In this document: positions 5,355-29,717 of the stretch, in pieces | How positions within the stretch are numbered: position 1 is the stretch's first letter | Layout: each line of letters starts with the position of its first letter | Assembly (NCBI RefSeq): GCF_037023745.1 | Contig: NZ_CP146101.1 | Location: forward strand, 4,332,001 to 4,396,000 | DNA: 64,000 bases | Direction of reading: 5' to 3' | Source of the DNA: Streptomyces sp. SCSIO 30461 | GTDB lineage: Bacteria; Actinomycetota; Actinomycetes; Streptomycetales; Streptomycetaceae | The notes under the pieces: model-generated | What the model was told of the DNA's origin: nothing | What the model saw: the letters and a program-made list of their open reading frames with translations, nothing else | Databases searched by the model: none | Translations under genes and position numbers: made by a program

Positions 5355-5504
5355 CGTGTGTACGGTGCCCTTCCTTGCTCTTCGAGCAGGTCTTCAAGCG
5401 GGTCGTTCAGCAGGTGTTCAGACAGGTGGGGGACGGTCGGTTCCGGTTCCGGTGCGTGGCACGGTCACGCACCGGGGGCGGCGCGACCGCGCGGTACTAC
5501 CGCG

Positions 5505-6596: not shown

Positions 6597-6653
6597 GAGG
6601 ACGTCTCCCGGAGAGGTGTGCGACAAAAGCCCGCATTCAGGCCTTTGTTCTTG

Positions 6654-8393: not shown

Positions 8394-8564
8394 GGCGGCC
8401 TTCCACCGGTCACGTCTCCGCACTGCGGCCGGCGTCGGGCCGACCGGCTGCGATCATCGGACGCGCGAGGCCGTGGGCCGCGGTACGCAGCCGCCCGGGT
8501 CACTCGAAAGCGGCGGTCGGGAGGACCGATCGGCACAGGGGCGACGCGGATCGGGTCCCGCTGA

Positions 8565-16718: not shown

Positions 16719-17486
16719 TCAGTGGTGGAGGATCTTCGACAGGAAGTCCTTGGCCCGGTCGCTGCGCGGATTGGTGAAGAACTCGTCGGGCGGTGCCTCT
16801 TCCACGATCCGCCCGTCCGCCATGAACACCACGCGGTTGGCGGCCGAACGGGCGAAGCCCATCTCATGAGTGACGACGACCATGGTCATTCCGTCCCGGG
16901 CGAGTTGTCGCATGACCTCGAGCACTTCGTTGATCATTTCCGGGTCCAGTGCGGAGGTGGGCTCGTCGAAGAGCATGATCTTGGGGTCCATCGCGAGCGC
17001 CCGGGCGATGGCGACGCGCTGCTGCTGGCCGCCGGACAGCTGGGCGGGGTACTTGTCCGCCTGGCCGGCGACACCGACCCGGTCGAGCAGCGAGCGTGCG
17101 TGTGCCTCGGCCTCGGTCCTGCCCTTCTTGCGGACCTTGAGCTGCCCGAGGGTGACGTTCTGGAGCACGGTCTTGTGGGCGAAGAGGTTGAAGGACTGGA
17201 ACACCATGCCGACGTCGGCGCGCAACCGGGCCAGCTCCCTGCCCTCGGCCGGCAGGGGCCTGCCGTCGATGACGATCTCGCCTGAGTCGACGGTCTCCAG
17301 GCGGTTGATCGCGCGGCACAGGGTGGACTTGCCGGATCCGGACGGCCCGATGACCACGACGACTTCGCCGCGCTGAACGGTCAGGTCGATGTCCCGGAGC
17401 ACATGGAGGGCGCCGAAGTGCTTGTTGACCTTGTTCAGCTCGACGAGCGCCCTGCCCGCGCGCGCGGCGGGGTGCTGCTCGCTCAC
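16719..17486 (-). CDS. gluA: glutamate-type ABC transporter ATP-binding protein, GluA-like
   Basis: 255 aa. Walker A GPSGSGKST at about residues 43-51, Q-loop MVFQSFNLF, signature LSGGQQQRVAIARAL, Walker B IMLFDEPTSAL and H-loop THEMGF are all present, so it is a functional polar-amino-acid importer ATPase. The GTG at 17486 overlaps the stop of the PAS-domain gene. It energises GluC/GluD. Confidence 0.93.
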   Translation of the reverse strand: MSEQHPAARAGRALVELNKVNKHFGALHVLRDIDLTVQRGEVVVVIGPSGSGKSTLCRAINRLETVDSGEIVIDGRPLPAEGRELARLRADVGMVFQSFNLFAHKTVLQNVTLGQLKVRKKGRTEAEAHARSLLDRVGVAGQADKYPAQLSGGQQQRVAIARALAMDPKIMLFDEPTSALDPEMINEVLEVMRQLARDGMTMVVVTHEMGFARSAANRVVFMADGRIVEEAPPDEFFTNPRSDRAKDFLSKILHH

Positions 17487-17935
17487 GGTCGCTCCGCTCC
17501 TCGCCCGCCGGGCCGCCGGGGCGGCCCCTGCAGTTCCTGTTCCGTCCAGACGGTCTTGCCGCGACGGGCGGCAGCCGCACTGGCAGGCTCGTTGGGCAGG
17601 GTCCAGCAGCCGATGCGGTCGGGTCCGAGCACCCGGGTGCGGGCCAGCACGGGGCCTTCCGGGTCGCCGGTGCCGTGCAGCCGGCCCCGGTAGCGCAGGT
17701 CCCTGATCGGTTCACCGGTGCGGAGTACCTCGCGCACCCTTTCCTCGGTCTCCGCGTCGATCAGCCCGAGCTCCCGCCAGGTGCGGCCCTGCAGCGCGTT
17801 CGGGTCCAGGCCCCGGACTCCCGGCGCGGCGGAGTTGTACCGCACGACGCGCAGCCCGCGGTCCCTCACGTGCAGCCCGACCGGGGGCCGTGTGAAGGGC
17901 GCGTCGAGCACTGCCGCATCGAAGTCGGGATCCAT
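17483..17935 (-). CDS. PAS-domain protein translationally coupled to gluA (150 aa)
   Basis: ATG at 17935 is preceded by AAGGAGG ten bases upstream, which decides the start over the much longer open frame. Residues about 10-110 resemble a PAS fold (VGLHVRDRGLRVVRYNSAAP, TWRELGLIDAETEERVREVL), followed by a basic tail. No kinase, DNA-binding or membrane part is visible. It is the first gene of the transcript and overlaps gluA by 4 bases (GTGA). A free-standing PAS module heading an amino acid importer is unusual; a sensor or adaptor role is inference. Confidence 0.75.
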   Translation of the reverse strand: MDPDFDAAVLDAPFTRPPVGLHVRDRGLRVVRYNSAAPGVRGLDPNALQGRTWRELGLIDAETEERVREVLRTGEPIRDLRYRGRLHGTGDPEGPVLARTRVLGPDRIGCWTLPNEPASAAAARRGKTVWTEQELQGPPRRPGGRGAERP

Positions 17936-18756
17936 GCCGTACGGGCCTCCTTGCCGTACGGCTTTTCGGTCGTACGGCGCGGGTGTGCGCACCTTGGCTT
18001 CCATTGAGCCGCGCCGGACGGGGGCGCGCACCCCGACGCGGGACCGACCGGGTGACCATCCGGCTGCTTCGCGGCCGAACGCGGAGCGATCACGTTCGGT
18101 GACGTCGCTCGACCGTGCGCATCCCCGAGTCGTGCGGCGGGCACCGGATCGTGGCGCGGCGGCAACCGGCACCGGTTGCCTGTACCTGGGTGGGACCACG
18201 GGCGAAGTACCGAGCACAGCGTCATGAACACGCCATTGCCGGAGGGCACCCACGGACCGATCACTCTCGCCCCAGAGGCCACTCAGAACTCTCACACCCC
18301 CACCGAAACTCCGTCTCGCCCGCCCCATCTGCCCCTCTTGACCAGGCCATACTTCCCGCCGCAGCCGCATCACCACCGAGCAGGCAGCGCCCCAGTCCCG
18401 CCGACCGCTTGAGGGGGCGCAGCCCGGATCACGTGCATCGCATTGACTGAAAATCATCAATTCACTATCGACCGCGTTGTCTGAACCACTGAAGGAAGTA
18501 AGCGTTTACCTGCTACGCCCGCTTGGTCCCGATGCGGAGCGGGTCGATACGATCACCTTCGTTTTTACGTCAACTTTCACGTTTGGCGCACAGACCCCAC
18601 ACAGAAGGCACCACTATGTGATCGACAGGGCATGGCGACTCCGCGCTCGGGGGAGGGCATCGTCGTCGTGCCGGGGGTTGGGCCGTGTTTGAGAGTTCCC
18701 GCCGGGTCGCGACATCCGGTGCTCAAACACGGCCTGGGGGGAGGGACTTCACCCGC
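17936..18756. other. 820-bp intergenic region without a confident gene
   Basis: Divergent region between the glutamate operon (minus) and the exopolysaccharide locus (plus). Several open frames exist but none has convincing codon bias with a ribosome site; a Pro/His-rich frame from the ATG at 18224 to 18412 is the least bad and was not called. AT-richer sequence at about 18435-18480 and 18545-18610 probably holds promoters. A perfect inverted repeat is listed separately at 18681-18734. Confidence 0.6.
18681..18734. promoter_or_regulatory. perfect 13-bp inverted repeat upstream of the exopolysaccharide locus
   Basis: GGCCGTGTTTGAG (18681-18693) and CTCAAACACGGCC (18722-18734) are exact reverse complements separated by 28 bases. 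It ends 22 bases before the ATG at 18757, between it and a GGGGGAGGG ribosome site. It could be an operator or a leader hairpin that controls the downstream genes. There is no T-run, so it is not a typical terminator. Confidence 0.7.
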
Positions 18757-19125
18757 ATGAAGCGGAGCCGCTCTTCGCGGACCATACGCACGGCCATGCT
18801 CAGCACGGACGCGCTCATTCCCGCGCCCGGGTTGCCGTCGGCGCCCGTCCGGGCCGTGGTGCTGCCCGGCGCAGATCCGGTCCCGGCCGGAACCGGTACG
18901 ACGACCGCGTGGATGGCGCACGAGACGGCATACGCCATCCCGCGGGCCGACGCACGCACCTGCGCCCAGGCGGGCCCGGGCCACGCCGTGGACGGCGGCC
19001 GTGCGAGACCGGCCGGCGGCATCGCCACCACGGTGGCCGCGGAGGGCGAGGCAGGTCCCTTCGGCCGTCTCGGCGGCGCCCTCGCCTTCGAGGGCAACGC
19101 GCCCGCATACGTCCAGCGCAGCTGA
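18757..19125 (+). CDS. small hypothetical protein at head of exopolysaccharide locus (122 aa)
   Basis: Not recognised. The frame from ATG 18757 (MKRSRSSRTIRTAM) has the strong G/C third-position bias of real genes here and a GGGAGGG element 11 bases upstream. The product is basic at the N-terminus, Ala/Gly/Pro-rich, with no signal peptide, membrane helix or motif. It lies 128 bp before the PelF-like glycosyltransferase, in the same direction. It may be a genuine small protein or a chance frame. Confidence 0.5.
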   Translation: MKRSRSSRTIRTAMLSTDALIPAPGLPSAPVRAVVLPGADPVPAGTGTTTAWMAHETAYAIPRADARTCAQAGPGHAVDGGRARPAGGIATTVAAEGEAGPFGRLGGALAFEGNAPAYVQRS

Positions 19126-19253
19126 ACCGACGGCCCGGTCCGCCGGGCCGCAACGGCACGTCGCGAGACAAGGGGTTCCGGGCGCCCCCGTGTGCCAGGA
19201 ACACCCCGCTCGGCTCGCCTTCCGCACCACTCTTTCTGCCGTGGAGCTCATCC

Positions 19254-20768
19254 ATGCACGTTCAGCACCGCGCGCCGCGTTCGGGCGCGGCGCGGGTCAC
19301 CCTGCTCACCGAAGGCACCTATCCCCACAGCCATGGCGGAGTGAGTGTCTGGTGCGACCAACTCGTCGGCGGCATGCCCGACATCGACTTCGACGTGATC
19401 GCGGTGACCGGCACCGGCCGTGAATCGCTCGCCTGGGACCTCCCGGCACATGTGTCCGAGCCGGTGACGGTGCCCATGTGGGGACCGGCGCCGACGGGTG
19501 CGCCACCGCGTGGGCGGAGTGAGCGCCGGCTGATGGCCTCGTACGAGAGATTCCTTACCGCCGTTCTCGACCCGTCCGCGGAGCACGAGTTCGCCCCCGC
19601 GCTGTACGAGCTGGCACATGCCGCCCGGGACGGGCGGCTGAGTCCCGCCCTGCGCGGTGACCGCGCCCTGCGGATCCTCACCGGGGTGTGGAACCGTAGA
19701 GGCCTGACCGTATGCGAGGCCCGTCCCACCTTGCACGACGCCGTCACCGCCACCAGCCTGCTCGAACACGCCCTACGGCCGCTCAGCGCATCGCCGCCGG
19801 AGCTCGGTGTCGCCCACGCGGTCAGCGGGGGCGTCGCGGTGCTTCCGGGGCTGGCGGCCAAGGAACTGCACGGCGTACCACTGCTGCTGACGGAGCACGG
19901 GGTGTATCTGCGGGAGCGCTATCTGGGCTACCGCACGGGGCCGTACCGCTGGCCGGTGAAGGCGGTGCTGCTCGGCTTCTTCCGGCTGCTGGCCGAGGAG
20001 ACCTACCGTCAGGCAGCACTGATCACCCCCGGCAACCGCTACAACCGGCTCTGGGAGGAGGAGGGCGGCGCCGACCCGCAGCTGATCCGCACGGTCTACA
20101 ACGGGGTCGATCCCGCGGCCTTCCCGCCCGCGGGCCCGGAGCCGCAGAGCCCCACGCTCAGCTGGGCCGGCCGGGTCGACCCGATCAAGGATCTGGAGAC
20201 CCTGATCAGAGCGTTCGCCCAGGTCCGGGAGGTCGTTCCGGAAGCCGCACTGCGGCTGTTCGGCGGTACACCGCGCGGCGGTGAGGCATACCGGGAGCGG
20301 TGCGAGGCGCTGGCCGCCTCCCTCGGCCAGGGTGACGCGGTCACCTTCGAGGGCCGGGTGGAGGACATCCGGGACGCCTATGCGGCAGGCAGCGTGGTGA
20401 TGCTCTCCAGTATCAGTGAGGGATTCCCCTTCACCCTGATCGAGGCCATGTCCTGCGGCCGGGCGACCGTGTCCACCGATGTGGGCGGGGTGCGGGAGGC
20501 CGTGGGGGACGCCGGGCTCGTGGTACCGCCGCGCGACCCGGCGGCAATGGCCGCCGCCGCGTTGGAGTTGCTTGCCGACCCGGTGCGGCGCGCTGCCATG
20601 GGTGAGGCGGCCCGGCTGCGGGTCATCGAGCAGTTCACGCTCCGTCAGACCATCCGCACCTTCCGCTCCATCTATCTGGAGCTGTCCGTACGCGGCATGT
20701 TCCAGCTCGCCGACCCGTGGGGCGCGGACCTCGACGACACGGTGATGCTGAGGAGCGTGGCCGGATGA
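19254..20768 (+). CDS. PelF-like GT4 glycosyltransferase (504 aa)
   Basis: Retaining GT4-family enzyme of the PelF type: the N-terminal part begins VTLLTEGTYPHSHGGVSVWC, the hallmark of PelF (DUF3492), with the ELHGVPLLLTEHGVYLRER segment, and the C-terminal lobe holds WAGRVDPIKDLETLIRAFA and the nucleotide-sugar E-x7-E motif in SEGFPFTLIEAMSCG. PelF polymerises N-acetylgalactosamine-type sugars from UDP donors in the cytoplasm. ATG 19254 is used; it overlaps no gene upstream, while its stop overlaps the membrane-protein gene (ATGA). The GH135-like and GH114 proteins downstream agree with a galactosamine polymer. Confidence 0.92.
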   Translation: MHVQHRAPRSGAARVTLLTEGTYPHSHGGVSVWCDQLVGGMPDIDFDVIAVTGTGRESLAWDLPAHVSEPVTVPMWGPAPTGAPPRGRSERRLMASYERFLTAVLDPSAEHEFAPALYELAHAARDGRLSPALRGDRALRILTGVWNRRGLTVCEARPTLHDAVTATSLLEHALRPLSASPPELGVAHAVSGGVAVLPGLAAKELHGVPLLLTEHGVYLRERYLGYRTGPYRWPVKAVLLGFFRLLAEETYRQAALITPGNRYNRLWEEEGGADPQLIRTVYNGVDPAAFPPAGPEPQSPTLSWAGRVDPIKDLETLIRAFAQVREVVPEAALRLFGGTPRGGEAYRERCEALAASLGQGDAVTFEGRVEDIRDAYAAGSVVMLSSISEGFPFTLIEAMSCGRATVSTDVGGVREAVGDAGLVVPPRDPAAMAAAALELLADPVRRAAMGEAARLRVIEQFTLRQTIRTFRSIYLELSVRGMFQLADPWGADLDDTVMLRSVAG

Positions 20769-22147
20769 GCGGGCCTCTGGCACTCGAATCCCAAGACGGC
20801 CGTGACGACACACTGACCCTGCGGCTGAGCGCCGCGCCCGAGCGTACGCTCGCCCCGCGCACGCCGAGGGCTCCCGACGACCCGGTGGACCGGTTGGCGG
20901 CCGACATGGCCGATCAGATAGGACCCGCCGTGCATGCCTGGGAGGTGGCCGCCCTCCTGGAGTCGGAGGGGCTGACGGGAGAACAGATCCGGGAGCGCTA
21001 CCGCCATCAGGGGCTGTTCTCGCTCGCCAGGGATCTCTACGGGCGGGTGCCACGCAGTTTTCCCGAGCCCGCGCGTGGTCCTGATCCCTGGGCACCGGAC
21101 CATGTCCGGTGCGCCCTGCGCGGCATGCTGTTCGCGCTGCCGGGTCTCGCGTACGTGCTGACCGGGCGGCTGTGGCAGGGCGAGCGGGGCGTGTTCGCCC
21201 TGATCGCCGCGGGGCTGCTGTCCTGGGCCTGGGGGCAGGCGCTCAGTCACCGGGCGTATCTGCGACTGGTGGTGGGACGGCGGGAGGCGGGGCGGACACT
21301 GTTGCTCGGCGCCCCGGCAGGTGCGTTGATCTCCTCGGCCGCGGCGGTGGCCGTGGCCGGTCCTGGGCCGGCGACGCTGTTCGCCGTGGGCCAGTCGCTG
21401 TATCTCGCGGCGGCCGGGGTCCTGCTGGTGTGCGGCAGGGAACGGATACTGCTCGCCACACTCACTCCACTGCTCGCGGGCACCGCTGTGCTGCCGTGGT
21501 GGGAGCCGGGTGGCGCCCTGCGCATCGCCCTGCCGACGCTCACGGCGCTGCTGTCCCTCGCCGTCGCCGGGCACTGCGTGCGGGGGATGCTGCGGACCGA
21601 GGCCGTGCCGGGTGAGCGCGGAGCCGGGCCGCGGATCGTCGCATCCCTTCCGTACGGGGTGTTCGGACTGGCCGCCGGGACACTGGTCGTTCTCGTGGGC
21701 CGGAACGGCGCGCTCGCCGTGGTGGCGCTGACCGTGAGTATGGGACCCGCCGAATGGCTGCTGTACCGCTACCGGGGTCTGGCGCTCGCGGCACTGCGGG
21801 CGACCGCGGACGAGACCGGCTTCCGGCTGCGGTCCGCGGGGACGCTCACCGCCTGCCTCGGCGGCTATCTCATCCCGCTGGTACCGGCCGCGCTGATGAC
21901 GAGCGCGTCGCCCTGGCCCGTGGTCGCCGTGGCGGCCCTGCTGTGGACCGCGCTGCTCCTCCAGGCGTTCGGCATCGCCTGGATTCCGGCCGTCGTCAGT
22001 GCCGGCGCGGCGTCAGCGGCAATGCTCGCGGCGGCCGCGGCAGGACCACCGGACTCCGCTGTCCTGCTGCTCTGCACCGCAACCGCCGCGCTGCTCCTCA
22101 CCGCGAGCGTGCTGTGGCTGCTGGGGCGCCCCACCGCACACGCCTGA
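20765..22147 (+). CDS. polytopic membrane protein, possible polysaccharide exporter (460 aa)
   Basis: Begins in ATGA overlap with the PelF-like gene. A soluble N-terminal region of about 110 residues (including a helical stretch EGLTGEQIRERYRHQGLFSL) is followed by about ten to twelve hydrophobic helices to the C-terminus. The helices are spaced like a Wzx/MATE-type flippase, and the position mirrors PelG next to PelF, but I see no diagnostic motif. Export of the polymer is therefore inference from coupling and topology. Confidence 0.8.
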   Translation: MSGPLALESQDGRDDTLTLRLSAAPERTLAPRTPRAPDDPVDRLAADMADQIGPAVHAWEVAALLESEGLTGEQIRERYRHQGLFSLARDLYGRVPRSFPEPARGPDPWAPDHVRCALRGMLFALPGLAYVLTGRLWQGERGVFALIAAGLLSWAWGQALSHRAYLRLVVGRREAGRTLLLGAPAGALISSAAAVAVAGPGPATLFAVGQSLYLAAAGVLLVCGRERILLATLTPLLAGTAVLPWWEPGGALRIALPTLTALLSLAVAGHCVRGMLRTEAVPGERGAGPRIVASLPYGVFGLAAGTLVVLVGRNGALAVVALTVSMGPAEWLLYRYRGLALAALRATADETGFRLRSAGTLTACLGGYLIPLVPAALMTSASPWPVVAVAALLWTALLLQAFGIAWIPAVVSAGAASAAMLAAAAAGPPDSAVLLLCTATAALLLTASVLWLLGRPTAHA

Positions 22148-22335
22148 CCCCCGCCCATCGGCGCGGGCGCACGACCACACCCCCGATCCACTACGCATCG
22201 CACACGGACGATCACCCGAAGGCACCGCTCACGAGAGCGGCCAAGCAAGACCAGGCAACACCAAGCAAAGACCCGGACCGACCCGAACCGACCCGGATCG
22301 GTCCGGGGACGTCCCAGGAAAGGGAAAGACACATC

Positions 22336-23343
22336 GTGACCTCGACCTCAGCGCCTCTGGCCGCCGTCACCGGAGCCGAGGGCTTCATCGGCTCCCATCT
22401 GACCGAGACCTTGGTGGCCGCCGGCTACCGGGTCCGCGCCATGGCCCAGTACAACTCCTTCTCCTCCTACGGCTGGCTGGAGACTCTGCCGTCCGAGGTG
22501 CTCGACGAGGTGGAGATCGTCCTCGGCGACGTCCGCGACCCCGGTTCCGTGCGCGGACTCGTCCAGGGCGCCGACGCGGTCTACCACCTTGCGGCACTGA
22601 TCGCGATCCCGTACTCGTACCAGGCACCGCACAGTTACGTGGACACCAATGTCACGGGCACGCTCAACGTGCTGGAAGCGGTGCGGGCGCTGGACATCCC
22701 CCGGCTGGTGCACACCTCCACCAGTGAGACCTACGGGACCGCGCAGACCGTGCCGATCACCGAGGACCACCCCATCAACACCCAGTCCCCGTACGCCGCG
22801 TCGAAGGCGGGCGGGGACCGGCTCGCGGACAGCTACCACGCCAGCTTCGAGACCCCCGTGGTCACCCTGCGCCCCTTCAACACCTTCGGTCCCCGGCAGT
22901 CCATGCGGGCGGTGATCCCGACGGTCATCGGCCAGGTGGCGGCGGGAGCCAGGACGCTCACCCTCGGCGATCTGCGGCCGACCCGGGACTTCACCTTCGT
23001 CAAGGACACCGCGCGCGCCTTCCTGTCCGTGGGCACCGCTCCGGCGGAGGCGGTGGTGGGCAGGACCTTCAACGCCGGTACCGGCGGCGAGATCTCGGTG
23101 GGCGACCTGGTCCGGCTGATCGGCAAGGTGATGGACACCGACCTCGACGTGCAGGAGGACGCACAGCGCATCCGGCCCCCCGCCTCCGAGGTGATGCGCC
23201 TGGTCGCCGACGCCTCCCGGCTGCGCGAGGCGACGGGTTGGGCACCGGAACACGACCTGGAGCAGGGGCTCCTGAAGACCGTCGAGTTCTTCCGCGACCC
23301 CGCCAACCTCGCCCGCTACAAGACCGACATCTACAACATCTGA
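22336..23343 (+). CDS. NAD-dependent sugar-nucleotide 4,6-dehydratase/epimerase, LegB-like (335 aa)
   Basis: Extended short-chain dehydrogenase: cofactor motif VTGAEGFIGSHLTE, catalytic Ser/Thr and Tyr-x3-Lys in HTSTSETYGT and SPYAASKAGGD, then LRPFNTFGPRQSMRAVIP. The string YNSFSSYGW after the first strands is typical of the LegB group (UDP-GlcNAc 4,6-dehydratases). The start is the GTG at 22336 after AGGGAAAGA. It should supply a modified UDP-hexosamine for the polymer. Alternative: a UDP-GlcNAc/GalNAc 4-epimerase of the same fold. Confidence 0.88.
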   Translation: MTSTSAPLAAVTGAEGFIGSHLTETLVAAGYRVRAMAQYNSFSSYGWLETLPSEVLDEVEIVLGDVRDPGSVRGLVQGADAVYHLAALIAIPYSYQAPHSYVDTNVTGTLNVLEAVRALDIPRLVHTSTSETYGTAQTVPITEDHPINTQSPYAASKAGGDRLADSYHASFETPVVTLRPFNTFGPRQSMRAVIPTVIGQVAAGARTLTLGDLRPTRDFTFVKDTARAFLSVGTAPAEAVVGRTFNAGTGGEISVGDLVRLIGKVMDTDLDVQEDAQRIRPPASEVMRLVADASRLREATGWAPEHDLEQGLLKTVEFFRDPANLARYKTDIYNI

Positions 23344-23437
23344 CCGCGGACCGCCCGAGAACCGCCCGGAAACACACCGAACTGGACCCTCACCACCCCA
23401 TGTTCCATTCAACCTCCGTACCCGCAGGGGGCTCCTC

Positions 23438-24151
23438 ATGCACGCAGTGATTCTCGCCGGAGGCAAGGGCATCCGGCTGCGCCCTTACACCACCGCGCTT
23501 CCCAAGCCGCTCGTCCCGATCGGCGACCAGCACGCGATTCTGGAGATCGTCCTCAGGCAGCTCGCCGCCTGCGGCTTCACCAGCTGCACCATCGCGGTCG
23601 GCCATCTCGGGCAGATCATCCGCGCCTACGTCGGCAGCGGCTCGCGCTGGGGGCTGACGATCGACTACGCGATCGAGGAGAGCCCACTGGGCACCATGGG
23701 ACCGCTGCTGACCATGCGGGACCGGCTGCCCGAATCGTTCCTGGTGATGAACGGGGACGTCCTCACCGACCTCGACTACGCCGACGTACTGCGGCGGCAC
23801 ATGTCGTCCGAAGCCGCACTGACCATCGCCACCTACGCCCGCAAGGTCCACATCGACTTCGGTGTGCTGACCACGGACGACGACCGTGTGGTGGGCTTCC
23901 GCGAGAAGCCCAGCATGGACTACCGGGTCTCCATGGGCGTGTACGGGGTCTCCCTCGGCACCCTCGACGGATACACCCCGGGGCTGCCGCTCGGCTTCGA
24001 CGAGTTGGTGCTCGACCTGCTCAAGCACGGCAACCCCCCGCACGCCTACGAGTTCGACGGCTACTGGCTGGACATCGGACGCCCGGACGACTACGACCGT
24101 GCCAACGCCGAATTCACCACGCACCAGTCCCTGTTGCTCAAGGGAGCCTGA
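23438..24151 (+). CDS. sugar-nucleotide pyrophosphorylase (nucleotidyltransferase, 237 aa)
   Basis: Starts with the signature HAVILAGGKGIRLRPYT and continues ALPKPLVPIGDQ, MNGDVLTDLDY, VVGFREKP and YWLDIGRPDDYD, the NTP_transferase fold of RmlA/mannose-1-phosphate guanylyltransferases in a short form without a C-terminal domain. It activates a sugar-1-phosphate to an NDP-sugar. The 94-bp gap and shared direction place it in the locus operon. The exact nucleotide and sugar cannot be told from sequence. Confidence 0.9.
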   Translation: MHAVILAGGKGIRLRPYTTALPKPLVPIGDQHAILEIVLRQLAACGFTSCTIAVGHLGQIIRAYVGSGSRWGLTIDYAIEESPLGTMGPLLTMRDRLPESFLVMNGDVLTDLDYADVLRRHMSSEAALTIATYARKVHIDFGVLTTDDDRVVGFREKPSMDYRVSMGVYGVSLGTLDGYTPGLPLGFDELVLDLLKHGNPPHAYEFDGYWLDIGRPDDYDRANAEFTTHQSLLLKGA

Positions 24152-24158
24152 ACGTTCC

Positions 24159-25094
24159 ATGCGCATCATCATCCTGGGCTTCACCGGGTATCTGGGCGGA
24201 CACATCACCGGGCAGTTGCGTGCGCTGGGAGGCGTCCGGCTGTTCGGCGGTGGTCGGTCACCGGCCGCCGAACTGCGCGTCGACCTCGCCACGGCCGACG
24301 CGGGACGGCTGGCCGAAGTGCTTTCCGACTTCGCACCCGACGCGGTCGTCAACTGCGCGGGTGCCGTCGGCGGCGACTCGGTGAGGCTCGCGGAAGTCAA
24401 CGTCCGGGGCCCGGCCGTGCTGTGCGCGGCACTGCGGGAGGCAGCGCCGGGGGCCCGCCTGGTGCATCTGGGCTCAGCCGCCGAGTACGGGCCCACCGAA
24501 CACGGGGTACGGGTGGCGGAGACCGCACCCGCCGCACCGGTGGGCCCCTACGGGGCCACCAAGCTCGCGGGGACCCTGACCGTGGCCTCGTCCGGTCTCG
24601 ACGCGGTGGTACTGCGGGTGGGCAACCCGGTCGGCCCCGGAGCCCCTCCGACCAGCCTGCCAGGTGGCACCGTCGAGCGGATCCTGAAGGCGGGCGACGG
24701 TCCCGGGGCGGTGGTCCGGTTCGGCGATCTTTCGGCGTACCGGGACTTCATCGACGTGCGGGATCTGGCGCGGGCGGTCGCGCTGGCCGCCACCGCCAAG
24801 GGGCCGCTACCCCGGGTGCTCAACGTGAGCGGCGGACAGGCCGTTCCGATCCGCGACCTGGTGCACGGTCTGATGGCAGAGGCCGGTTTCCCCGGCCGAG
24901 CCGAGGAGGCTGCGGTGCCCGGCTCGACCCGCTCGGCCGGGGTGGGCTGGCAGTGCTCCGACATCACCGCGGCGTTCGAGTCACTGAGCTGGGAGCCGAG
25001 GCACCGGCTCGCGGACTCGCTGTCCGCGCTCTGGCAGTCGGTGTCACCGACGTCGTCGGTGACACCGAGGCCGAGAACGGACTCGCGTACATGA
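24159..25094 (+). CDS. NAD-dependent epimerase/reductase-type sugar enzyme (311 aa)
   Basis: Second extended SDR in the locus: RIIILGFTGYLGGHITGQL cofactor motif, VVNCAGAVGGDSVRLAEVNV, LGSAAEYGP and PVGPYGATKLAGT (Tyr-x3-Lys), FRDFIDVRDLARA-like segment. Closest in style to dTDP-rhamnose reductase/NDP-sugar 4-ketoreductases. It starts 8 bp after the nucleotidyltransferase and its stop overlaps the spherulin-4 gene. Likely completes the sugar made by the LegB-like enzyme. Confidence 0.85.
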   Translation: MRIIILGFTGYLGGHITGQLRALGGVRLFGGGRSPAAELRVDLATADAGRLAEVLSDFAPDAVVNCAGAVGGDSVRLAEVNVRGPAVLCAALREAAPGARLVHLGSAAEYGPTEHGVRVAETAPAAPVGPYGATKLAGTLTVASSGLDAVVLRVGNPVGPGAPPTSLPGGTVERILKAGDGPGAVVRFGDLSAYRDFIDVRDLARAVALAATAKGPLPRVLNVSGGQAVPIRDLVHGLMAEAGFPGRAEEAAVPGSTRSAGVGWQCSDITAAFESLSWEPRHRLADSLSALWQSVSPTSSVTPRPRTDSRT

Positions 25095-25753
25095 GCCTGC
25101 TGGTGCCGCTCTATGTGCACCCCTCCGAGGACCCGGACGCCTGGCGACTGCTGGTGTCGGCCGCCGACCGGATCTATGGCGTGGTGCTCAACACCGCCAG
25201 TGGGCCGGGCACTTCGCCCGACCCGGCGTTCGTCTCCGCCGCCCGCGCTCTGCGGGCGGCGGGGACCCGCGTCCTCGGCTACGTCGACCTGGACTACGGG
25301 GTACGACCCGATGACGAAGTGCTCCACGACATCGACCGGTACCGCGAGTGGTACGACGCCGACGGCTGCTTCTTAGACCAGGTGCCGGCCGACAGCTCCG
25401 CACTGTCCGGTTGCCGCCGCCTGGTGCGGGCGGCGCGGCAGCGGGGATCGGCGACCGTCGTGCTCAACCACGGTGTGCATCCCGCGCCGGGCTACGCGCG
25501 GATCGCGGATCTGCTCGTGACCTTCGAGGGCCCCTGGAACGTGTACCTGTCGTCGTTCACCCTTCCCCGGTGGACGTCCCGCCATCCGCCGGAACGGTTC
25601 TGCCATCTGGTCTACGAGGTCCCGCCCGCGCTGGCCCGGGTCGCCGGGAAGGCGGCATCCGAGCGTGGTGCGGCAGTGTCGTGCGCCGTCACGGATACGC
25701 TGCCCAATCCATGGCTCGCCCCGCCTCTCGCACTGTTCGAGGAAACCGCGTGA
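25091..25753 (+). CDS. spherulation-specific family 4 (GH135-like) protein (220 aa)
   Basis: The fold signature of Spherulin-4 is plain: LLVPLYVHPSEDPDAW, GVVLNTASGPG, LGYVDLDYGVR, IDRYREWY, GCFLDQVPAD, LLVTFEGPW. The fungal relative Sph3 (GH135) is an endo-alpha-1,4-N-acetylgalactosaminidase. Compared with its FDE pair this protein has D96-Q97, while the later acidic residue is kept as E146 in TFEGPW. There is no signal peptide, so the protein appears cytoplasmic. It overlaps both neighbours (ATGA, GTGA) and is thus co-translated with the GH114 lipoprotein. Confidence 0.88.
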   Translation: MSLLVPLYVHPSEDPDAWRLLVSAADRIYGVVLNTASGPGTSPDPAFVSAARALRAAGTRVLGYVDLDYGVRPDDEVLHDIDRYREWYDADGCFLDQVPADSSALSGCRRLVRAARQRGSATVVLNHGVHPAPGYARIADLLVTFEGPWNVYLSSFTLPRWTSRHPPERFCHLVYEVPPALARVAGKAASERGAAVSCAVTDTLPNPWLAPPLALFEETA

Positions 25754-26571
25754 CAGTTCGTACCCCACTGGATCGCAGATCCCGGTCCGCCGTACTGCTC
25801 GCCTTCGTCGGCCTGCTGCTGCTCGCGGGCTGCACAGCGGACCCGGTCCCGCGCCCTGGACCGGACCGTCCGCGTTGGGTGCCCGGACCAGGTACGCCCT
25901 GGCAGTGGCAGCTGAGCGGCGTGCTCGACCCCACGGCCGCCGACGCGCCCGTGTACGACATCGACGGCTTCGAGAGCACCGCTGATGATGTGGCCCGCCT
26001 GCACCGGGACGGCCGGAAGGTCATCTGCTACATCAACGCAGGCTCGTGGGAGGACTTCCGGCCCGACGCAGCCGACTACCCCGCTGCCGTGCGAGGCAAG
26101 TCGAACGGCTGGCCTGGCGAGCGCTGGCTCGACATCCGCAGGCTGGCCGTGCTCCGCCCGCTGCTCGAACGGCGCTTCGACATGTGTCGCGACAAGGGCT
26201 TCGACGCGGTCGAGCCGGACCTCATGGACGGGTACCTGAACGACACGGGCTTTCCGCTGACGGCGGAGCACCAACTGGCGTTCAACCGGATGCTCGCGCA
26301 CCTCGCCCATGAGCGCGGAATGTCGGTGGGACTGAAGAACGACTTGCCGCAGATCCCCGCACTGGTGCGGGACTTCGACTTCGCAGTCAACGAGGAGTGC
26401 GCCCAGTACGGTGAGTGCGCGCTGCTCACCCCGTTCGTCAAGGCGGGGAAGGCGGTATTCCACGTCGAGTACGCCCTGTCCACGGACGAGTTCTGCGCCG
26501 AGGCACGCCGTCTCGGCCTGTCGTCCATGCGCAAGAGGCTGGAGCTGGACGCCTGGCGTGACCCCTGCTGA
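25750..26571 (+). CDS. GH114 endo-alpha-1,4-polygalactosaminidase-like lipoprotein (273 aa)
   Basis: Lipoprotein leader with lipobox LLLAGC (Cys28), then the GH114 barrel: WQWQLSG, PVYDIDGFES, VICYINAGSWEDFRPDA, GFDAVEPDLMDGY, VGLKNDLPQI and AVNEECAQYGEC. Family members (Ega3 in fungi, Pseudomonas enzyme) cut partially deacetylated alpha-1,4-galactosamine polymers. The conserved Asp and Glu in DIDGF and EPD are present, so activity is expected, outside the cell on the membrane surface. The GTG at 25750 overlaps the previous stop. It is the last gene of the locus and converges on polX. Confidence 0.93.
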   Translation: MTVRTPLDRRSRSAVLLAFVGLLLLAGCTADPVPRPGPDRPRWVPGPGTPWQWQLSGVLDPTAADAPVYDIDGFESTADDVARLHRDGRKVICYINAGSWEDFRPDAADYPAAVRGKSNGWPGERWLDIRRLAVLRPLLERRFDMCRDKGFDAVEPDLMDGYLNDTGFPLTAEHQLAFNRMLAHLAHERGMSVGLKNDLPQIPALVRDFDFAVNEECAQYGECALLTPFVKAGKAVFHVEYALSTDEFCAEARRLGLSSMRKRLELDAWRDPC

Positions 26572-26606
26572 CCGCCTCAACGGCGTCGGCGGCGGCCGCC
26601 GGTCAG
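26568..26606. terminator. short dyad spanning the convergent stops of GH114 gene and polX
   Basis: CTGACCG (26568-26574) pairs with CGGTCAG (26600-26606) around a GC-rich loop with further pairing. It lies exactly between the two convergent genes and includes both stop codons. It probably serves as a bidirectional terminator; the stem is short. Confidence 0.45.
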
Positions 26607-28324
26607 TCAGCTGGGCGCAGGAATCGGCGGAGCCGGGTGAGCGACCAGGTGTTGACGATGTCGTCCTTGGTCAGCCAGCCGCGCTGTGCCGTGGCCACCC
26701 CATAGCGCATGTAGGGCAGGTGCGTGGTGGAGTGGGAGTCCGAGTTCACCGCGAACGCCACCCCGTACCGCTTGGCACGCAGGATGTCCTCATCGCACAG
26801 GTCGAGGCGCTCGGGGTGGGCGTTGATCTCCAGGGCGGTGCCGGTCCTGGCGCAGGCCGCGAAGACCGCGTCGAAGTCGGCGTCGATGCCGGGGCGTTTG
26901 CCGATGCGGCGGGTGGTGGGGTGTCCGATGATCGCGACATACGGATTCTCACAGGCGCGGATCAGGCGGCGGGTGAGCGCCTCCCGGCTCTGGTTGAAGT
27001 GCGAGTGGATGGAGGCGACGCAGATGTCGAATCCGGCGAGGAACTCGTCGGGCCAGTCGACGCCCCCGTCCGGTGCGATGTTGAGTTCGGTGCCGTGCAG
27101 CAGCCGCATTCCCTTGTGCTTGCGGTCGAGCGCGCGGACCTGCTCGCGCTGGGCGAGCATCTTCTCCTTGGTCATGCGCTGCATGGCGAGGTCAGGTGCG
27201 TGGTCGGTGACGGCGTAATAGGAATAGCCGCGTCCGGCGGCTGCGGCGACCATGTCCGCCAGCGAGGCAAGGCCGTCGGTGAGGTCGGTGTGGGTGTGCA
27301 GATCCCCGCGGATGTCCTTCTCGGTGACCAGCTCAGGCAGTTCGCCGCGCAGCCCGGCCGCGATCTCACCCCGGTCCTCGCGCAGGGTGGGCGGGATCCA
27401 GGGCAGCCCGAGGCGTTCGTAGATCTCCTCCTCGGTCCTGGAGACGACCCTCTTCCCGCTCTCGGCGTCGAAGAGTCCGTACTCGGAGAGTTTCAGCCCG
27501 AGGCGGACGGCGATCTCGCGGGTGCGGATATTGTGCGCCTTGGAACCGGTGAAGTACTGGAGGCCGCCGCCCCAGGAGTCGGGCGGCAGCACCCGCAGAT
27601 CGACCTGGAGGCCCCTGGTGGTACGGATGGACGTCTTCTTCTCGCCGTGTGCAATGACCTCCGCGGTGTACGGGAGGCGTCTGAGGGCCTCCATGAACGG
27701 CGCCGACTTCTTGGCGGCGACGAGGATGTCGATGTCACCGATGGTCTCGCGCATCCGGCGCAGCGACCCGGCGTAGGCGCAGCCCTCGCAGCCCTTGATC
27801 TCCGAAAGGGCGGCAACGATCTGCTCGGCAGAGTCCATCGCGGCGTTGAGAAGGATTCTGCTTCCGGCCCTCTGCATCAGGGCGATGCCGTGCAGGAGGT
27901 TCTCCTCGGTCTTCTCGCCGAAGCCCTTGAGTTCCCTGAGGCGCTCCTGGTGGATGGCGTCGAGGAGTTGGTCGACTGAGGCGACCTCCAGTTCCCGATA
28001 GAGGAGCAGGGCCCTCTTGGGTCCGAGCATGGGGATGGCCATCAGTTCCCGGACCCCGGCCGGGATGGACTGCCTGCGCTCCTCGACGACGGCGATCCGG
28101 CCGGTCGTCAGGTACTCGGTGACCTTGTCGGCGATCGACTTGCCGACGTTGGGGATCTCCTTCAGTCCCTTGGCGTCGAGTGCGGCGACATCGGTGTGGT
28201 AGCCACCGATGGCGCGGGCGGCCTTCTCGTAGGAGCGAGCCCGAAAGGCGTCACCGCCCGTGATGGCGATGAGGTCGGCGTACTCCTGGAGCAGCGCTTC
28301 GATCTCCTCGTTGGCCTTGGGCAT
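26603..28324 (-). CDS. polX: DNA polymerase/3'-5' exonuclease PolX
   Basis: 573 aa. N-terminal helix-hairpin-helix and family X polymerase core (FRARSYEKAARAIGGYH, LKEIPNVGKSIADKV, GSLRRMRETIGDIDILVA with the catalytic Asp pair, and the third Asp in LQVDLRVLP), then a PHP exonuclease domain (DLHTHTDLTDG, YAVTDHAP, ASIHSHFNQSREALT, INAHPERLDL). Bacterial PolX fills short gaps in base-excision repair. The start is the ATG at 28324 matching the family (MPKANEEIEALLQEY), not the longer frame. It stands alone. Confidence 0.95.
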   Translation of the reverse strand: MPKANEEIEALLQEYADLIAITGGDAFRARSYEKAARAIGGYHTDVAALDAKGLKEIPNVGKSIADKVTEYLTTGRIAVVEERRQSIPAGVRELMAIPMLGPKRALLLYRELEVASVDQLLDAIHQERLRELKGFGEKTEENLLHGIALMQRAGSRILLNAAMDSAEQIVAALSEIKGCEGCAYAGSLRRMRETIGDIDILVAAKKSAPFMEALRRLPYTAEVIAHGEKKTSIRTTRGLQVDLRVLPPDSWGGGLQYFTGSKAHNIRTREIAVRLGLKLSEYGLFDAESGKRVVSRTEEEIYERLGLPWIPPTLREDRGEIAAGLRGELPELVTEKDIRGDLHTHTDLTDGLASLADMVAAAAGRGYSYYAVTDHAPDLAMQRMTKEKMLAQREQVRALDRKHKGMRLLHGTELNIAPDGGVDWPDEFLAGFDICVASIHSHFNQSREALTRRLIRACENPYVAIIGHPTTRRIGKRPGIDADFDAVFAACARTGTALEINAHPERLDLCDEDILRAKRYGVAFAVNSDSHSTTHLPYMRYGVATAQRGWLTKDDIVNTWSLTRLRRFLRPAD

Positions 28325-28748
28325 GGTTCCAGCGTCACATGAGGTCCGGCGGCATGCGCTGAGCGGCGTGGCCCTGGAACACGCGGTCCTGCGGTGTCCG
28401 CCGGGTGGGAGACACGAGCGCGATCCCGAGCGTTGTCGCCGGATCACCGAGCTCCGCGAGACATCGTTCCGGTCCGAGCGCTCACTCGCCGAACAGCGGG
28501 CGGCGGTACCGGGAATGCCTGGGGAGCAGCCTGCGAAGGCGATGGTCACGATATCGATCTGCGCGACCCGGAGGATCACGCGGCGGGCAACCACTGGAGT
28601 GACGAGCAGGGGAATCCCGAGCGCAGTATCGGACCGGGTCGGGGTAATGGTGTCGGTCGGCAAGCCTGATGGCCGTGATGCGGGCGGGTACGGCCCGGCC
28701 TAGCCTCGAATGAGTGGTCCGTTCGGGGGAATCGAGAGAGAAGAGCCG
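28325..28748. other. 424-bp divergent intergenic region
   Basis: Separates polX (minus) from the esterase gene (plus). Open frames are present on both strands but are extensions of the neighbouring frames with no ribosome sites of their own. I see no gene, repeat or clear hairpin. A GAGAGAAGAG stretch before 28749 serves as the ribosome site of the esterase. Confidence 0.6.
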
Positions 28749-29717
28749 ATGTCAACCGCCTACATGTCCAGCTCGCCGGTGCTAGAGCCCGAGGCGTCGG
28801 AGCTCGCGGCGGCGACCAGCAACCACCCGTTCCTCTTCGAGATGCCTCCGGCGGAAGGCCGAAAGACCGTCGACGACGTGCAGTCGGGCGAGATCCCCAT
28901 GCCTGCGGTCGACGAGGAGTGGATCACGGTACACAGCGGCCCGACCGGCTCGGTGCGTGCCCGTATCGTCAGACCGGCCGGCGCCACCGGGAGCATCCCC
29001 GTGATCCTTTACATCCATGGCGCGGGGTGGGTGTTCGGTGACGCACACACCCATGACCGGCTGGTGCGGGAACTCGCCACCGGGGTGGGCGCCGCCGTCG
29101 TCTTCCCCGAGTACGACCGCTCGCCGGAGGCCCACTACCCGATCGCGATCGAGCAGAACTACGCCGTCGCGCGATGGGTGGTCTCCGACGGCGCGAACAA
29201 GGACCTGGACGCATCCCGGATGGCCGTCGCGGGCGATTCGGTGGGCGGGAACATGGCGATCGCGCTGACCCTGATGGCGAAGGAGCGCGGGGACGTCTCC
29301 CTGGTGCAGCAGGTGCTCTTCTACCCGGTGACCGACGCGAACTTCGACACCCCCTCGTACCACCAGTTCGCCGAGGGCTATTCCCTGCGGCGCGACGGGA
29401 TGCAGTGGTTCTGGGACCAGTACACGACCGACGAACGTGAACGCGCCCAGATCACCGCGTCGCCGCTGCGTGCGTCGCTGGACGAGCTCGCGGGGCTGCC
29501 TCCGGCGCTGGTGATCACCGGTGAGGCGGATGTGCTGCGCGACGAGGGCGAGGCCTACGCGAACAAACTGCGCCAGGCCGGCGTGCCGGTGACCTCCACG
29601 CGCTACCAGGGCATCATCCATGACTTCGTCATGCTGAACGCGCTGCGCTCGACCCAGGCCGCGAAGGCGGCGATCGCGCAGGCCACGACGGCACTCAGGG
29701 AAGCGCTGCACCCTTGA
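28749..29717 (+). CDS. alpha/beta hydrolase, HSL-type esterase (322 aa)
   Basis: Hormone-sensitive-lipase family: oxyanion motif YIHGAGWVFGD (HGAG instead of the commoner HGGG), nucleophile motif AGDSVGGNMA, acid in ITGEADVLRDEG, and catalytic His in GIIHDFVML. About 50 residues precede the core and may form the lid. No signal peptide, so it is cytoplasmic, acting on short acyl esters. ATG 28749 follows a purine-rich site. Its stop codon lies inside a 17-bp tandem repeat. Confidence 0.92.
   Translation: MSTAYMSSSPVLEPEASELAAATSNHPFLFEMPPAEGRKTVDDVQSGEIPMPAVDEEWITVHSGPTGSVRARIVRPAGATGSIPVILYIHGAGWVFGDAHTHDRLVRELATGVGAAVVFPEYDRSPEAHYPIAIEQNYAVARWVVSDGANKDLDASRMAVAGDSVGGNMAIALTLMAKERGDVSLVQQVLFYPVTDANFDTPSYHQFAEGYSLRRDGMQWFWDQYTTDERERAQITASPLRASLDELAGLPPALVITGEADVLRDEGEAYANKLRQAGVPVTSTRYQGIIHDFVMLNALRSTQAAKAAIAQATTALREALHP

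What the first reader, a model, noticed from the sequence alone, without database searches (positions are those of the whole stretch)
19254..26571. Pel/galactosaminogalactan-like exopolysaccharide locus pairing spherulin-4 (GH135-like) with GH114
A coupled set of PelF-type GT4, polytopic membrane protein, two SDR sugar enzymes, a nucleotidyltransferase, a spherulin-4 protein and a GH114 lipoprotein. In Aspergillus the galactosaminogalactan cluster also joins a GT4, an epimerase, Sph3 (GH135) and Ega3 (GH114); bacterial Pel uses PelF with PelA. Seeing the two fungal hydrolase types with PelF in an actinomycete operon suggests a distinct galactosamine-type polymer pathway. No deacetylase, PelD/E, or classic PelG is visible, and a LegB-like dehydratase and pyrophosphorylase hint at a modified sugar.
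Basis: partly seen in the sequence, partly recalled or inferred. Interest (0 to 1): 0.85.

Follow-up and report, generated by a model that had tools for sequence, protein, structure and literature searches.

The report
Streptomyces galactosaminogalactan-like sugar polymer operon
A block of seven genes in this soil bacterium looks like a machine for making a sticky amino-sugar polymer related to one made by moulds and one made by Pseudomonas, probably with an altered sugar; the general type of gene cluster has been noticed before, but this form of it deserves testing.

Summary
In detail: 19254-26571 encodes PelF (GT4), a polytopic protein, a LegB-like SDR, a nucleotidyltransferase, a second SDR, a GH135 (Sph3-like) and a GH114 (Ega3-like) lipoprotein. 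All 65 fetched Streptomyces loci with enough contig keep the set through Sph4; 49 also have GH114. Here it is a remnant at 18829-19110, but an intact paralogue stands 1.7 Mb away. Genomes with a strong PelF all have a deacetylase (52/52; 116/116), and all 7 PelF loci lacking one in cis have one elsewhere. This places the locus among the bacterial agd3-type operons reported in PMC7229062; its membrane protein shows no detectable PelG homology. Not described in the text I read: the dehydratase/nucleotidyltransferase/reductase trio, also found in order on Deinococcus plasmids and pointing to a 6-deoxy(amino)sugar; a GH135 without a hydrophobic export signal (0 of 68); and a sister locus, seen in 79 of 119 genomes, whose GH135 lost its catalytic Glu in 23 of 23 copies read. 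New variant of a known kind.

The parts
18829..19110 (+). Remnant of an Agd3-family (CE18/CBM87) deacetylase gene, about 95 residues of the N-terminal part; the catalytic part is missing; the open frame 18685-19125 ends in TGA
   Evidence: tblastn of a relative's intact protein, 42.6% over 94 aa, E 3.7e-14; profile A2 positions 3-98 of 593, E 1.7e-14; sequence read
19254..20768 (+). PelF-type GT4 glycosyltransferase, 504 aa, the only glycosyltransferase among the seven genes
   Evidence: PF11997 6.8e-60 and GT4 domains; NCBIfam NF038011 PelF 170.9 bits, cut-off 100
20765..22147 (+). Polytopic membrane protein (MemP), 460 aa, hydrophobic segments after a non-hydrophobic N-terminal stretch of at least 100 aa; no named family; presumed synthase partner or exporter
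   Evidence: no Pfam or NCBIfam hit; hydropathy only; hhalign against 8 PelG probability 0.1%; 836 relatives, the 120 listed without a Pfam domain
22336..23343 (+). SDR1, LegB-like NAD-dependent SDR with TSTSETYG motif, 4,6-dehydratase type by that motif
   Evidence: TIGR04180 457.1 bits, cut-off 475; motif in 7 of 7 type A copies and 3 of 3 Deinococcus copies examined; best PDB sequence match 6wjb 3.8e-38
23438..24151 (+). NTP, sugar-1-phosphate nucleotidyltransferase, closest in sequence to mannose-1-phosphate guanylyltransferases
   Evidence: PF00483 6.2e-38; NF052502 129.5 bits, cut-off 440; PDB 7d72 1.3e-27
24159..25094 (+). SDR2, nucleotide-sugar reductase/epimerase family
   Evidence: PF01370 2.6e-37; best PDB match 2pk3 GDP-6-deoxy-D-lyxo-4-hexulose reductase 1.1e-19, next 6wjb 1.8e-19
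25091..25753 (+). Sph4, GH135 (Sph3-like) hydrolase, 220 aa, starts directly at the barrel without a hydrophobic N-terminus; D96 and E146 align with the catalytic positions
   Evidence: PF12138 1.7e-34; PDB 5c5g spherulin-4 2e-9; D96/E146 in the window and 67 of 67 relatives aligned; no hydrophobic N-terminus in 68 of 68 relatives by a simple hydropathy test, nor in the window
25750..26571 (+). GH114 (Ega3-like) endo-alpha-1,4-galactosaminidase family protein with lipoprotein signal (LLAGC); D157 and E215 align with the catalytic positions
   Evidence: PF03537 5.9e-85; PDB 6oj1/6ojb 1.7e-56 and 2.1e-56; D157/E215 in the window and 50 of 50 relatives, lipobox with hydrophobic stretch in 48 of 50 relatives

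Best explanation
The locus makes and trims a galactosaminogalactan/Pel-like, partly de-N-acetylated amino-sugar exopolysaccharide. Inferred steps: (1) NTP, SDR1 and SDR2 supply an activated 6-deoxy sugar, most likely a 6-deoxy-N-acetylhexosamine, alone or beside housekeeping UDP-GalNAc; (2) PelF polymerises on the cytosolic face and MemP passes the chain through the membrane; (3) a secreted Agd3-family deacetylase, now encoded elsewhere in this genome because the local gene is a remnant, makes the chain cationic; (4) the GH114 lipoprotein cuts deacetylated stretches outside the cell; (5) Sph4, which lacks an export signal, acts on acetylated chain in the cytosol or at the synthase mouth as an editor or clearing enzyme. 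Shown here: family membership, residues at catalytic positions, gene coupling, co-occurrence, the remnant and the intact paralogue. Not shown: any activity, the sugar, export, or that the distant deacetylase serves this locus.
For: Families; GH114 matches Ega3 at 1.7e-56, Sph4 matches Sph3 at 2e-9, residues at the catalytic positions kept. Of 69 strong PelF in 119 genomes, 62 have a full-length deacetylase 48-474 bp upstream, 62 have Sph4 downstream, 55 both, 34 these and a GH114 above 265 bits. Genome sets with strong PelF and with the deacetylase coincide, 52 and 52; in a draw of 257 genomes 116 of 116 strong-PelF genomes have it and 7 have only the deacetylase. All 7 PelF loci lacking a cis deacetylase have one in trans, against 29 of 62 others, Fisher p 0.012. 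The deacetylase is Agd3 family: profile-profile 100%, E 7e-40, to a group in which 10 of 10 match PF25115 and PF25116, whose first member hits Agd3 6nwz at 8e-13. All 65 type A loci with room keep the order. Three of four Deinococcus plasmids have PelF-MemP-SDR1-NTP-SDR2-deacetylase followed by an annotated polygalactosaminidase.
Against: No polymer, enzyme activity or expression was tested. The cis deacetylase is gone in this strain, so the locus may be decaying. GH114 is missing from 16 of 65 type A loci with room, and 31 of 70 strong GH114 places and 23 of 116 Sph4 places have no partner row nearby, so neither hydrolase is exclusive to PelF. Type B loci lack the sugar trio; D. grandis lacks SDR2 and its SDR1 is annotated UDP-glucose 4-epimerase. 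The Deinococcus polygalactosaminidases tested do not align significantly with the window's GH114 and the QL22 one lacks the NE motif. A GH135 without an export signal does not fit the fungal model. MemP has no detectable relation to a known exporter and its fold was not predicted. The direct Pfam match of a type A deacetylase to Agd3_CE is 18.7 bits, cut-off 27.6. Co-occurrence is not corrected for phylogeny.
Confidence: 0.72

Rival explanations
1. A true Pel system in which MemP is only a very diverged PelG and the sugar genes are accessory.
For: PelF passes the NCBIfam equivalog cut-off; MemP occupies the PelG position right after PelF; in G158 a real PelG, a GAF/GGDEF protein and a TPR protein stand with PelF and an Agd3-family deacetylase, and G129 has the same layout and a PelG hit.
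Against: MemP has no Pfam or NCBIfam hit, hhalign against 8 PelG gives 0.1%, PelG has no hit in this genome, no PelD/PelE-like protein is among the seven.
Confidence: 0.2
2. A catabolic cluster used to degrade fungal galactosaminogalactan.
For: GH135 and GH114 are the enzymes needed; in G003 the same two families stand in a cluster with binding proteins, permeases and a GH4 family enzyme, which looks catabolic; G009 has a like layout (domains not called).
Against: The window locus has a synthase-type GT4 and three nucleotide-sugar genes and no importer among its genes; Sph4 has no export signal.
Confidence: 0.06
3. The trio plus PelF glycosylates something other than an exopolysaccharide, such as a cell-wall polymer or secondary metabolite, with a deoxysugar.
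For: A nucleotidyltransferase, a 4,6-dehydratase type SDR and a reductase are the usual deoxysugar set.
Against: No aglycone genes among the seven; close link with an Agd3-family deacetylase and GH135, and often GH114, families that act on alpha-1,4 amino-sugar polymers.
Confidence: 0.1
4. In this particular strain the locus is a decaying leftover without a product.
For: The deacetylase is truncated, and the locus lies at 0.459 of the chromosome while 17 of 18 other type A places measured lie within 0.141 of an end.
Against: The seven remaining frames are open, the two hydrolases keep their catalytic positions, and an intact deacetylase remains at the type B site.
Confidence: 0.2

Closest known systems
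Bacterial agd3-containing putative exopolysaccharide operons (Bamford et al. 2020, PMC7229062; section 13 and passages read, Fig. 8c not held)
   Same: Agd3-family deacetylase with a cytoplasmic glycosyltransferase, a multi-spanning membrane protein, GH114, and Spherulin-4 in some Actinobacteria
   Different: The window has lost the cis deacetylase; the text read does not mention the dehydratase/nucleotidyltransferase/reductase trio, the missing export signal of Sph4, or coexisting type A and type B loci (the figure could not be viewed, so it may show some of this)
Aspergillus galactosaminogalactan cluster (Uge3, Gtb3, Agd3, Sph3, Ega3; as described in PMC12054363, section 4 read)
   Same: GH135, GH114 and, in relatives of the window, an Agd3-family deacetylase
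   Different: Separate PelF and MemP instead of one membrane synthase; an SDR with a dehydratase-type motif instead of the Uge3 epimerase; Sph4 without export signal
Pel systems (P. aeruginosa; Gram-positive pelDEADAFG, PMC7112168, passages read)
   Same: PelF glycosyltransferase family, partly deacetylated alpha-1,4 GalNAc-type polymer expected
   Different: No PelD, PelE, PelA-type protein or detectable PelG among the seven; deacetylase of the Agd3 family; GH114/GH135 hydrolases

Membership tests
Pel system | PelF glycosyltransferase | tested here: met
   NF038011 170.9 bits, cut-off 100
Pel system | PelG exporter | tested here: not met
   No PF16933 hit in MemP or in the genome; hhalign 0.1%
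Pel system | PelD/PelE/PelA in the locus | tested here: not met
   None of the seven proteins matches such families; the rest of the genome was not searched for them
Fungal GAG cluster | GH135 Sph3-type hydrolase | tested here: met
   PF12138 and 5c5g matches, D96/E146 kept
Fungal GAG cluster | GH114 Ega3-type hydrolase | tested here: met
   6oj1 1.7e-56, D157/E215 kept
Fungal GAG cluster | Uge3-type UDP-hexose 4-epimerase | tested here: inconclusive
   SDR1 has Thr-Ser-Glu where 6wjb (recalled as the Pel epimerase PelX) has Ser-Ala-Ala, and scores LegB 457 against GalE 148 bits, which argues against; activity untested
Fungal GAG cluster | Single membrane synthase Gtb3 | tested here: not met
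   PelF and MemP are two genes; homology of MemP to Gtb3 not tested
Bacterial agd3-type operon | Agd3-family (CE18/CBM87) deacetylase gene in the operon | tested here: not met
   Only a remnant in the window; present in 62 of 69 strong-PelF loci and in trans in this genome
Bacterial agd3-type operon | Cytoplasmic glycosyltransferase and multi-spanning membrane protein | tested here: met
   (hydropathy only)
Bacterial agd3-type operon | GH114 and Spherulin-4 genes | tested here: met
LegB 4,6-dehydratase (TIGR04180) | Score above the curated cut-off | tested here: not met
   457.1 against 475 bits; the Deinococcus QL22 copy 467.6
Any of these | Production of a partly deacetylated alpha-1,4 GalNAc-type polymer | not testable with these tools
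   Needs chemistry

The most novel reading that the evidence does not exclude
Type A is a third branch of the Pel/GAG polymer family: a synthase that builds a partly deacetylated 6-deoxy-hexosamine polymer (for example N-acetylfucosamine/fucosamine) from its own GDP- or UDP-linked precursor, with a new class of membrane partner replacing PelG and a cytosolic GH135 that edits or clears chain before export, sharing one deacetylase pool in trans between the type A and type B loci of a genome.
Probability: 0.27. Interest if true: 0.8.

Novelty: new variant of a known kind. Interest (0 to 1): 0.56.

Why it matters
PMC12054363 (passage read) leaves open why bacteria carry four families of endo-galactosaminidases; this operon ties two of them to a PelF synthase and an Agd3-family deacetylase in a genetically tractable genus. 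It would give a bacterial model of the galactosaminogalactan machinery, suggest a deoxysugar version of the polymer, and make the old reports of galactosamine polymers and a galactosaminidase in Streptomyces (cited in PMC7229062, passage read) testable by gene deletion.

Tried and rejected
Catabolic reading rejected for the window because the catabolic-looking cluster L047 has importers and a GH4 enzyme and no PelF hit. PelG identity of MemP tested by Pfam, NCBIfam and hhalign without support. Direct sequence search of the type A deacetylase against solved structures found no Agd3; the link was made through intermediates. No Rfam family at the gathering score in 17400-27200, no tRNA in 17000-29000, no sigma-70-type consensus promoter in 18200-26900, only two-copy repeats around the truncation. 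MemP coupling across all 119 genomes could not be counted because the search failed twice; it rests on fetched loci.

Rows dropped before counts: the PF03537 rows of 193 bits and below (70 rows above 265 bits were used); PF11997 matches not listed (150 rows listed and used); two PF11997 rows of 150.7 and 167.4 bits (type D) belong to neither class; 8 fragmentary or distant deacetylase rows (G057:C34, G092:C14, G103:C4:6372210, G070:C168, G000:C1:4350829, two of G074, G042:C55; 69 full-length rows used). In one search, 15 of 80 loci were cut by contig ends. The positions are the 18 type A and 11 type B places whose contig length was at hand, not all.
Full report
What is there. The window lies in a Streptomyces genome (G000, one contig of 8,047,498 bases, position 4332001-4396000; the genus is inferred from the named relatives). 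The seven genes of the finding are real, on one strand, at 19254-26571, with 4-bp overlaps between PelF and the membrane protein, SDR2 and Sph4, and Sph4 and GH114. Pfam and NCBIfam confirm PelF/DUF3492, two SDR proteins and a nucleotidyltransferase, Pfam also Spherulin4 and Glyco_hydro_114; neither finds anything for the membrane protein, called MemP here. GH114 matches the fungal Ega3 structures 6oj1/6ojb at about 2e-56 and Sph4 matches Sph3 (5c5g) at 2e-9.

How it is conserved. PF12138, PF11997 and PF03537 were searched in the same 119 genomes of the order (76, 103 and 104 genomes with hits). Of the 150 PelF rows listed, 69 are strong (over 180 bits), 79 weak (60-130 bits) and 2 between. 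Of the 69 strong ones 62 have Sph4 downstream on the same strand within 9 kb, and the gap is bimodal: 37 at 4.7-5.3 kb (type A, like the window) and 25 at 2.1-2.8 kb (type B); 36 of the 69 have both Sph4 and a GH114 above 265 bits. The link is not exclusive from the hydrolase side: 23 of 116 Sph4 rows have no listed PelF upstream, and 31 of 70 strong GH114 rows have no PelF or Sph4 row within 10 kb. Fetched loci show type A as PelF-MemP-SDR1-NTP-SDR2-Sph4, with or without GH114, and type B as PelF-MemP-Sph4, with or without GH114. Of the 7 strong PelF without Sph4, 6 were fetched: four lack Sph4 in the stretch (one of these also lacks MemP and GH114) and two are cut by contig ends.

The missing gene. 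In each of the 18 fetched type A or B loci from other genomes a gene called at 553-716 codons (one cut by the end of the stretch) stands directly before PelF. Its product matches Agd3_CE (PF25115) weakly in 10 of 10 members scanned (best E 1.1e-4) and Agd3 CBM87 (PF25116) in 3 of 10 (best 3.2e-4), and does not find Agd3 among solved structures. Intermediates settle it: the type D relative in G315 hits Agd3 6nwz at 8e-13; 10 of 10 members of a group around it match both Agd3 families; and profile-profile comparison joins the Streptomyces family to that group with probability 100%, E 7e-40 over 535 columns. The invariant stretches HVDD, NHTY-x-H and HQSN look like the Agd3 catalytic motifs described in PMC7229062 (passages); that correspondence is my reading. 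In the window only about 95 N-terminal residues remain, at 18829-19110, upstream of all these stretches.

In cis or in trans. A full-length deacetylase stands 48-474 bp upstream of 62 of 69 strong PelF. Genomes with a strong PelF and genomes with the deacetylase are the same 52 of 119. In a second draw of 257 genomes, 12 of whose positive genomes were already in the first, 116 have a strong PelF (E up to 1e-52), all 116 have the deacetylase (E up to 1e-100), and 7 have the deacetylase only. The 7 PelF loci of the first draw without a cis copy, the window among them, all lie in genomes with a copy elsewhere, against 29 of 62 loci with a cis copy (Fisher p 0.012). In G000 that copy is an intact 716-codon gene with all three stretches at C1:6069164-6070945, next to a CobS gene, where relatives carry type B; PelF, MemP, Sph4 and GH114 are not found there. 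So this genome keeps a type A operon without deacetylase and a type B site reduced to its deacetylase. That one serves the other is inference. These counts are not corrected for shared ancestry.

Named relatives. A scan of genome contigs with the deacetylase alignment found 381 relatives, of which the best 80, all titled Streptomyces, were kept. All 65 loci with at least 9 kb of contig after the deacetylase carry deacetylase-PelF-MemP-SDR1-NTP-SDR2-Sph4, and 49 of the 65 also GH114; 15 of 80 are cut by contig ends. The sample is biased to type A by the query. Type A also sits on a linear plasmid of S. californicus, and a type B set sits between two copies of one transposase gene on a mobilizable plasmid of Kocuria rosea. 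Among the places whose contig length was at hand, 18 of type A lie 0.023-0.318 of the length from an end (17 within 0.141) and 11 of type B at 0.235-0.305; the window locus, at 0.459, is unusual.

Beyond Streptomyces. In 346 genomes across the phylum 11 carry the deacetylase at E 1e-5, 6 of them outside Streptomyces. Their surroundings: G417 has deacetylase-PelF-membrane protein-Sph4-GH114; G315 has type D (deacetylase-PelF-MemP-NTP-SDR2 and more); G404 has PelF, a MemP-like protein, a broken deacetylase and a GH114; G119 has a distant relative with no PelF hit nearby; G158 has a GAF/GGDEF protein, a TPR protein, PelF, a true PelG (PF16933 2.6e-142) and an Agd3-family deacetylase (PF25115 3.8e-24), with a Sph4-like protein on the other strand, and G129 has the same layout and a PelG hit, which links Pel and GAG-type parts in one place. 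On the four Deinococcus plasmids found, QL22, D. aquaticus and D. ficus have PelF-MemP-SDR1-NTP-SDR2-deacetylase and then one or more annotated polygalactosaminidases (in D. aquaticus after one more gene), and D. grandis has PelF (annotated as a lipopolysaccharide glycosyltransferase), an unnamed protein, SDR1 (annotated UDP-glucose 4-epimerase), NTP, deacetylase and an unnamed protein, without SDR2 (the D. grandis proteins were placed by order and annotation only). In the first three SDR1 is 64-67% and NTP 59-62% identical to the window's, SDR2 38-39%, MemP only weakly alike (E 1e-15 to 7e-11), and the polygalactosaminidases tested do not align significantly with the window's GH114.

The sugar. 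SDR1 is nearest to LegB (457.1 bits, cut-off 475) and far from dTDP-glucose dehydratase (169.8), GalE (147.7) and GMD (90.8). Its best solved relative by sequence is 6wjb, which I recall as the Pel epimerase PelX, but where that protein has Ser-Ala-Ala SDR1 has Thr-Ser-Glu, the pattern I recall for 4,6-dehydratases, in 7 of 7 type A and 3 of 3 Deinococcus copies examined. NTP is nearest to mannose-1-phosphate guanylyltransferases and SDR2 to a GDP-6-deoxy-4-hexulose reductase, with 6wjb almost level. Together they suggest an activated 6-deoxy sugar; because the system has an N-deacetylase, a 6-deoxy-N-acetylhexosamine is my preferred guess. Against this, type B lacks the trio, D. grandis lacks SDR2, and PelF is the only glycosyltransferase of the set. 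On a PelF tree the presence of sugar genes needs two changes, type A and a weakly supported Deinococcus/type D group.

Where the enzymes act. GH114 has a lipoprotein signal in the window, and a lipobox with hydrophobic stretch in 48 of 50 relatives. Sph4 starts inside the SDR2 stop codon in 67 of 68 loci, and none of the 68, nor the window, has a hydrophobic N-terminal stretch by a simple test, so it is probably cytosolic, unlike the fungal model in PMC12054363 (section 4). The Asp and Glu at its catalytic positions are kept in the window and 67 of 67 relatives, those of GH114 in the window and 50 of 50; the positions come from sequence alignment and from the residues named in PMC12054363 (passages), not from a structure. 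A cytosolic GH135 next to the polymerase could clear unexported chain; this is inference.

Relation to what is printed. PMC7229062 (section 13 whole, other passages; [quoted passage not shown] The kind of system is therefore known in outline. PMC7112168 (passages) covers Gram-positive pelDEADAFG, a different gene set. PMC9135694 and PMC12345266 were seen in passages only. Searches listed no paper whose listing or read passages describe the type A trio, the unexported Sph4 or the deacetylase in trans; for most papers only the listing was seen, subscription papers are not held, and Fig. 8c of PMC7229062 could not be viewed.

Verdict. An operon of the bacterial agd3/GAG-like kind in a distinct, widespread variant with its own sugar genes, here with the deacetylase decayed in cis. 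The polymer and every activity remain to be shown, and the fold of MemP could not be predicted.

Noticed in passing
L044 (G000:C1:1533000-1549000), PelF2 at G000:C1:1538323, Sph4 at 1542367; relatives L045, L046, L183-L202: A second, weaker PelF locus (type C: PelF-MemP-SDR2-Sph4-ThiF/rhodanese in the three loci read whole); weak PelF rows occur in 79 of 119 genomes and 31 of these 79 have a PF12138 hit downstream. Its GH135 has lost the catalytic Glu in 23 of 23 copies read, so it looks like a pseudo-hydrolase.
   Followed up: partly
L047 (G003) and L048 (G009): In another family of the order, GH135 and GH114 genes stand with ABC importer, SIS-domain and GH4 genes, as if for eating a galactosamine polymer (domains called for L047 only).
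   Followed up: partly
L165, L166 (G158, G129): PelF and a true PelG stand with GAF/GGDEF and TPR proteins, an Agd3-family deacetylase and, on the other strand, a Sph4-like protein with a hydrophobic N-terminus in L165: a Pel/GAG hybrid (domains called for L165).
   Followed up: partly
L173:5480-14548 (Kocuria rosea plasmid): A type B operon lies between two copies of the same transposase gene on a plasmid typed as mobilizable.
   Followed up: no
L051 (G018), L054 (G000) and the orphan places: A GH114 (L051) or a deacetylase (L054) can stand alone where relatives carry type B, as if the other genes were lost; 7 of 69 full-length deacetylases have no strong PelF directly downstream.
   Followed up: partly
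L062, L063, L164: Type D operons carry deacetylase-PelF-MemP-NTP-SDR2, GH114-like proteins that are divergent, and a different SDR with a TSE motif.
   Followed up: partly
3579-8423: On the minus strand a [NiFe] hydrogenase large and small subunit and a formyltransferase/enoyl-CoA-hydratase protein that resembles HypX (name recalled).
   Followed up: no
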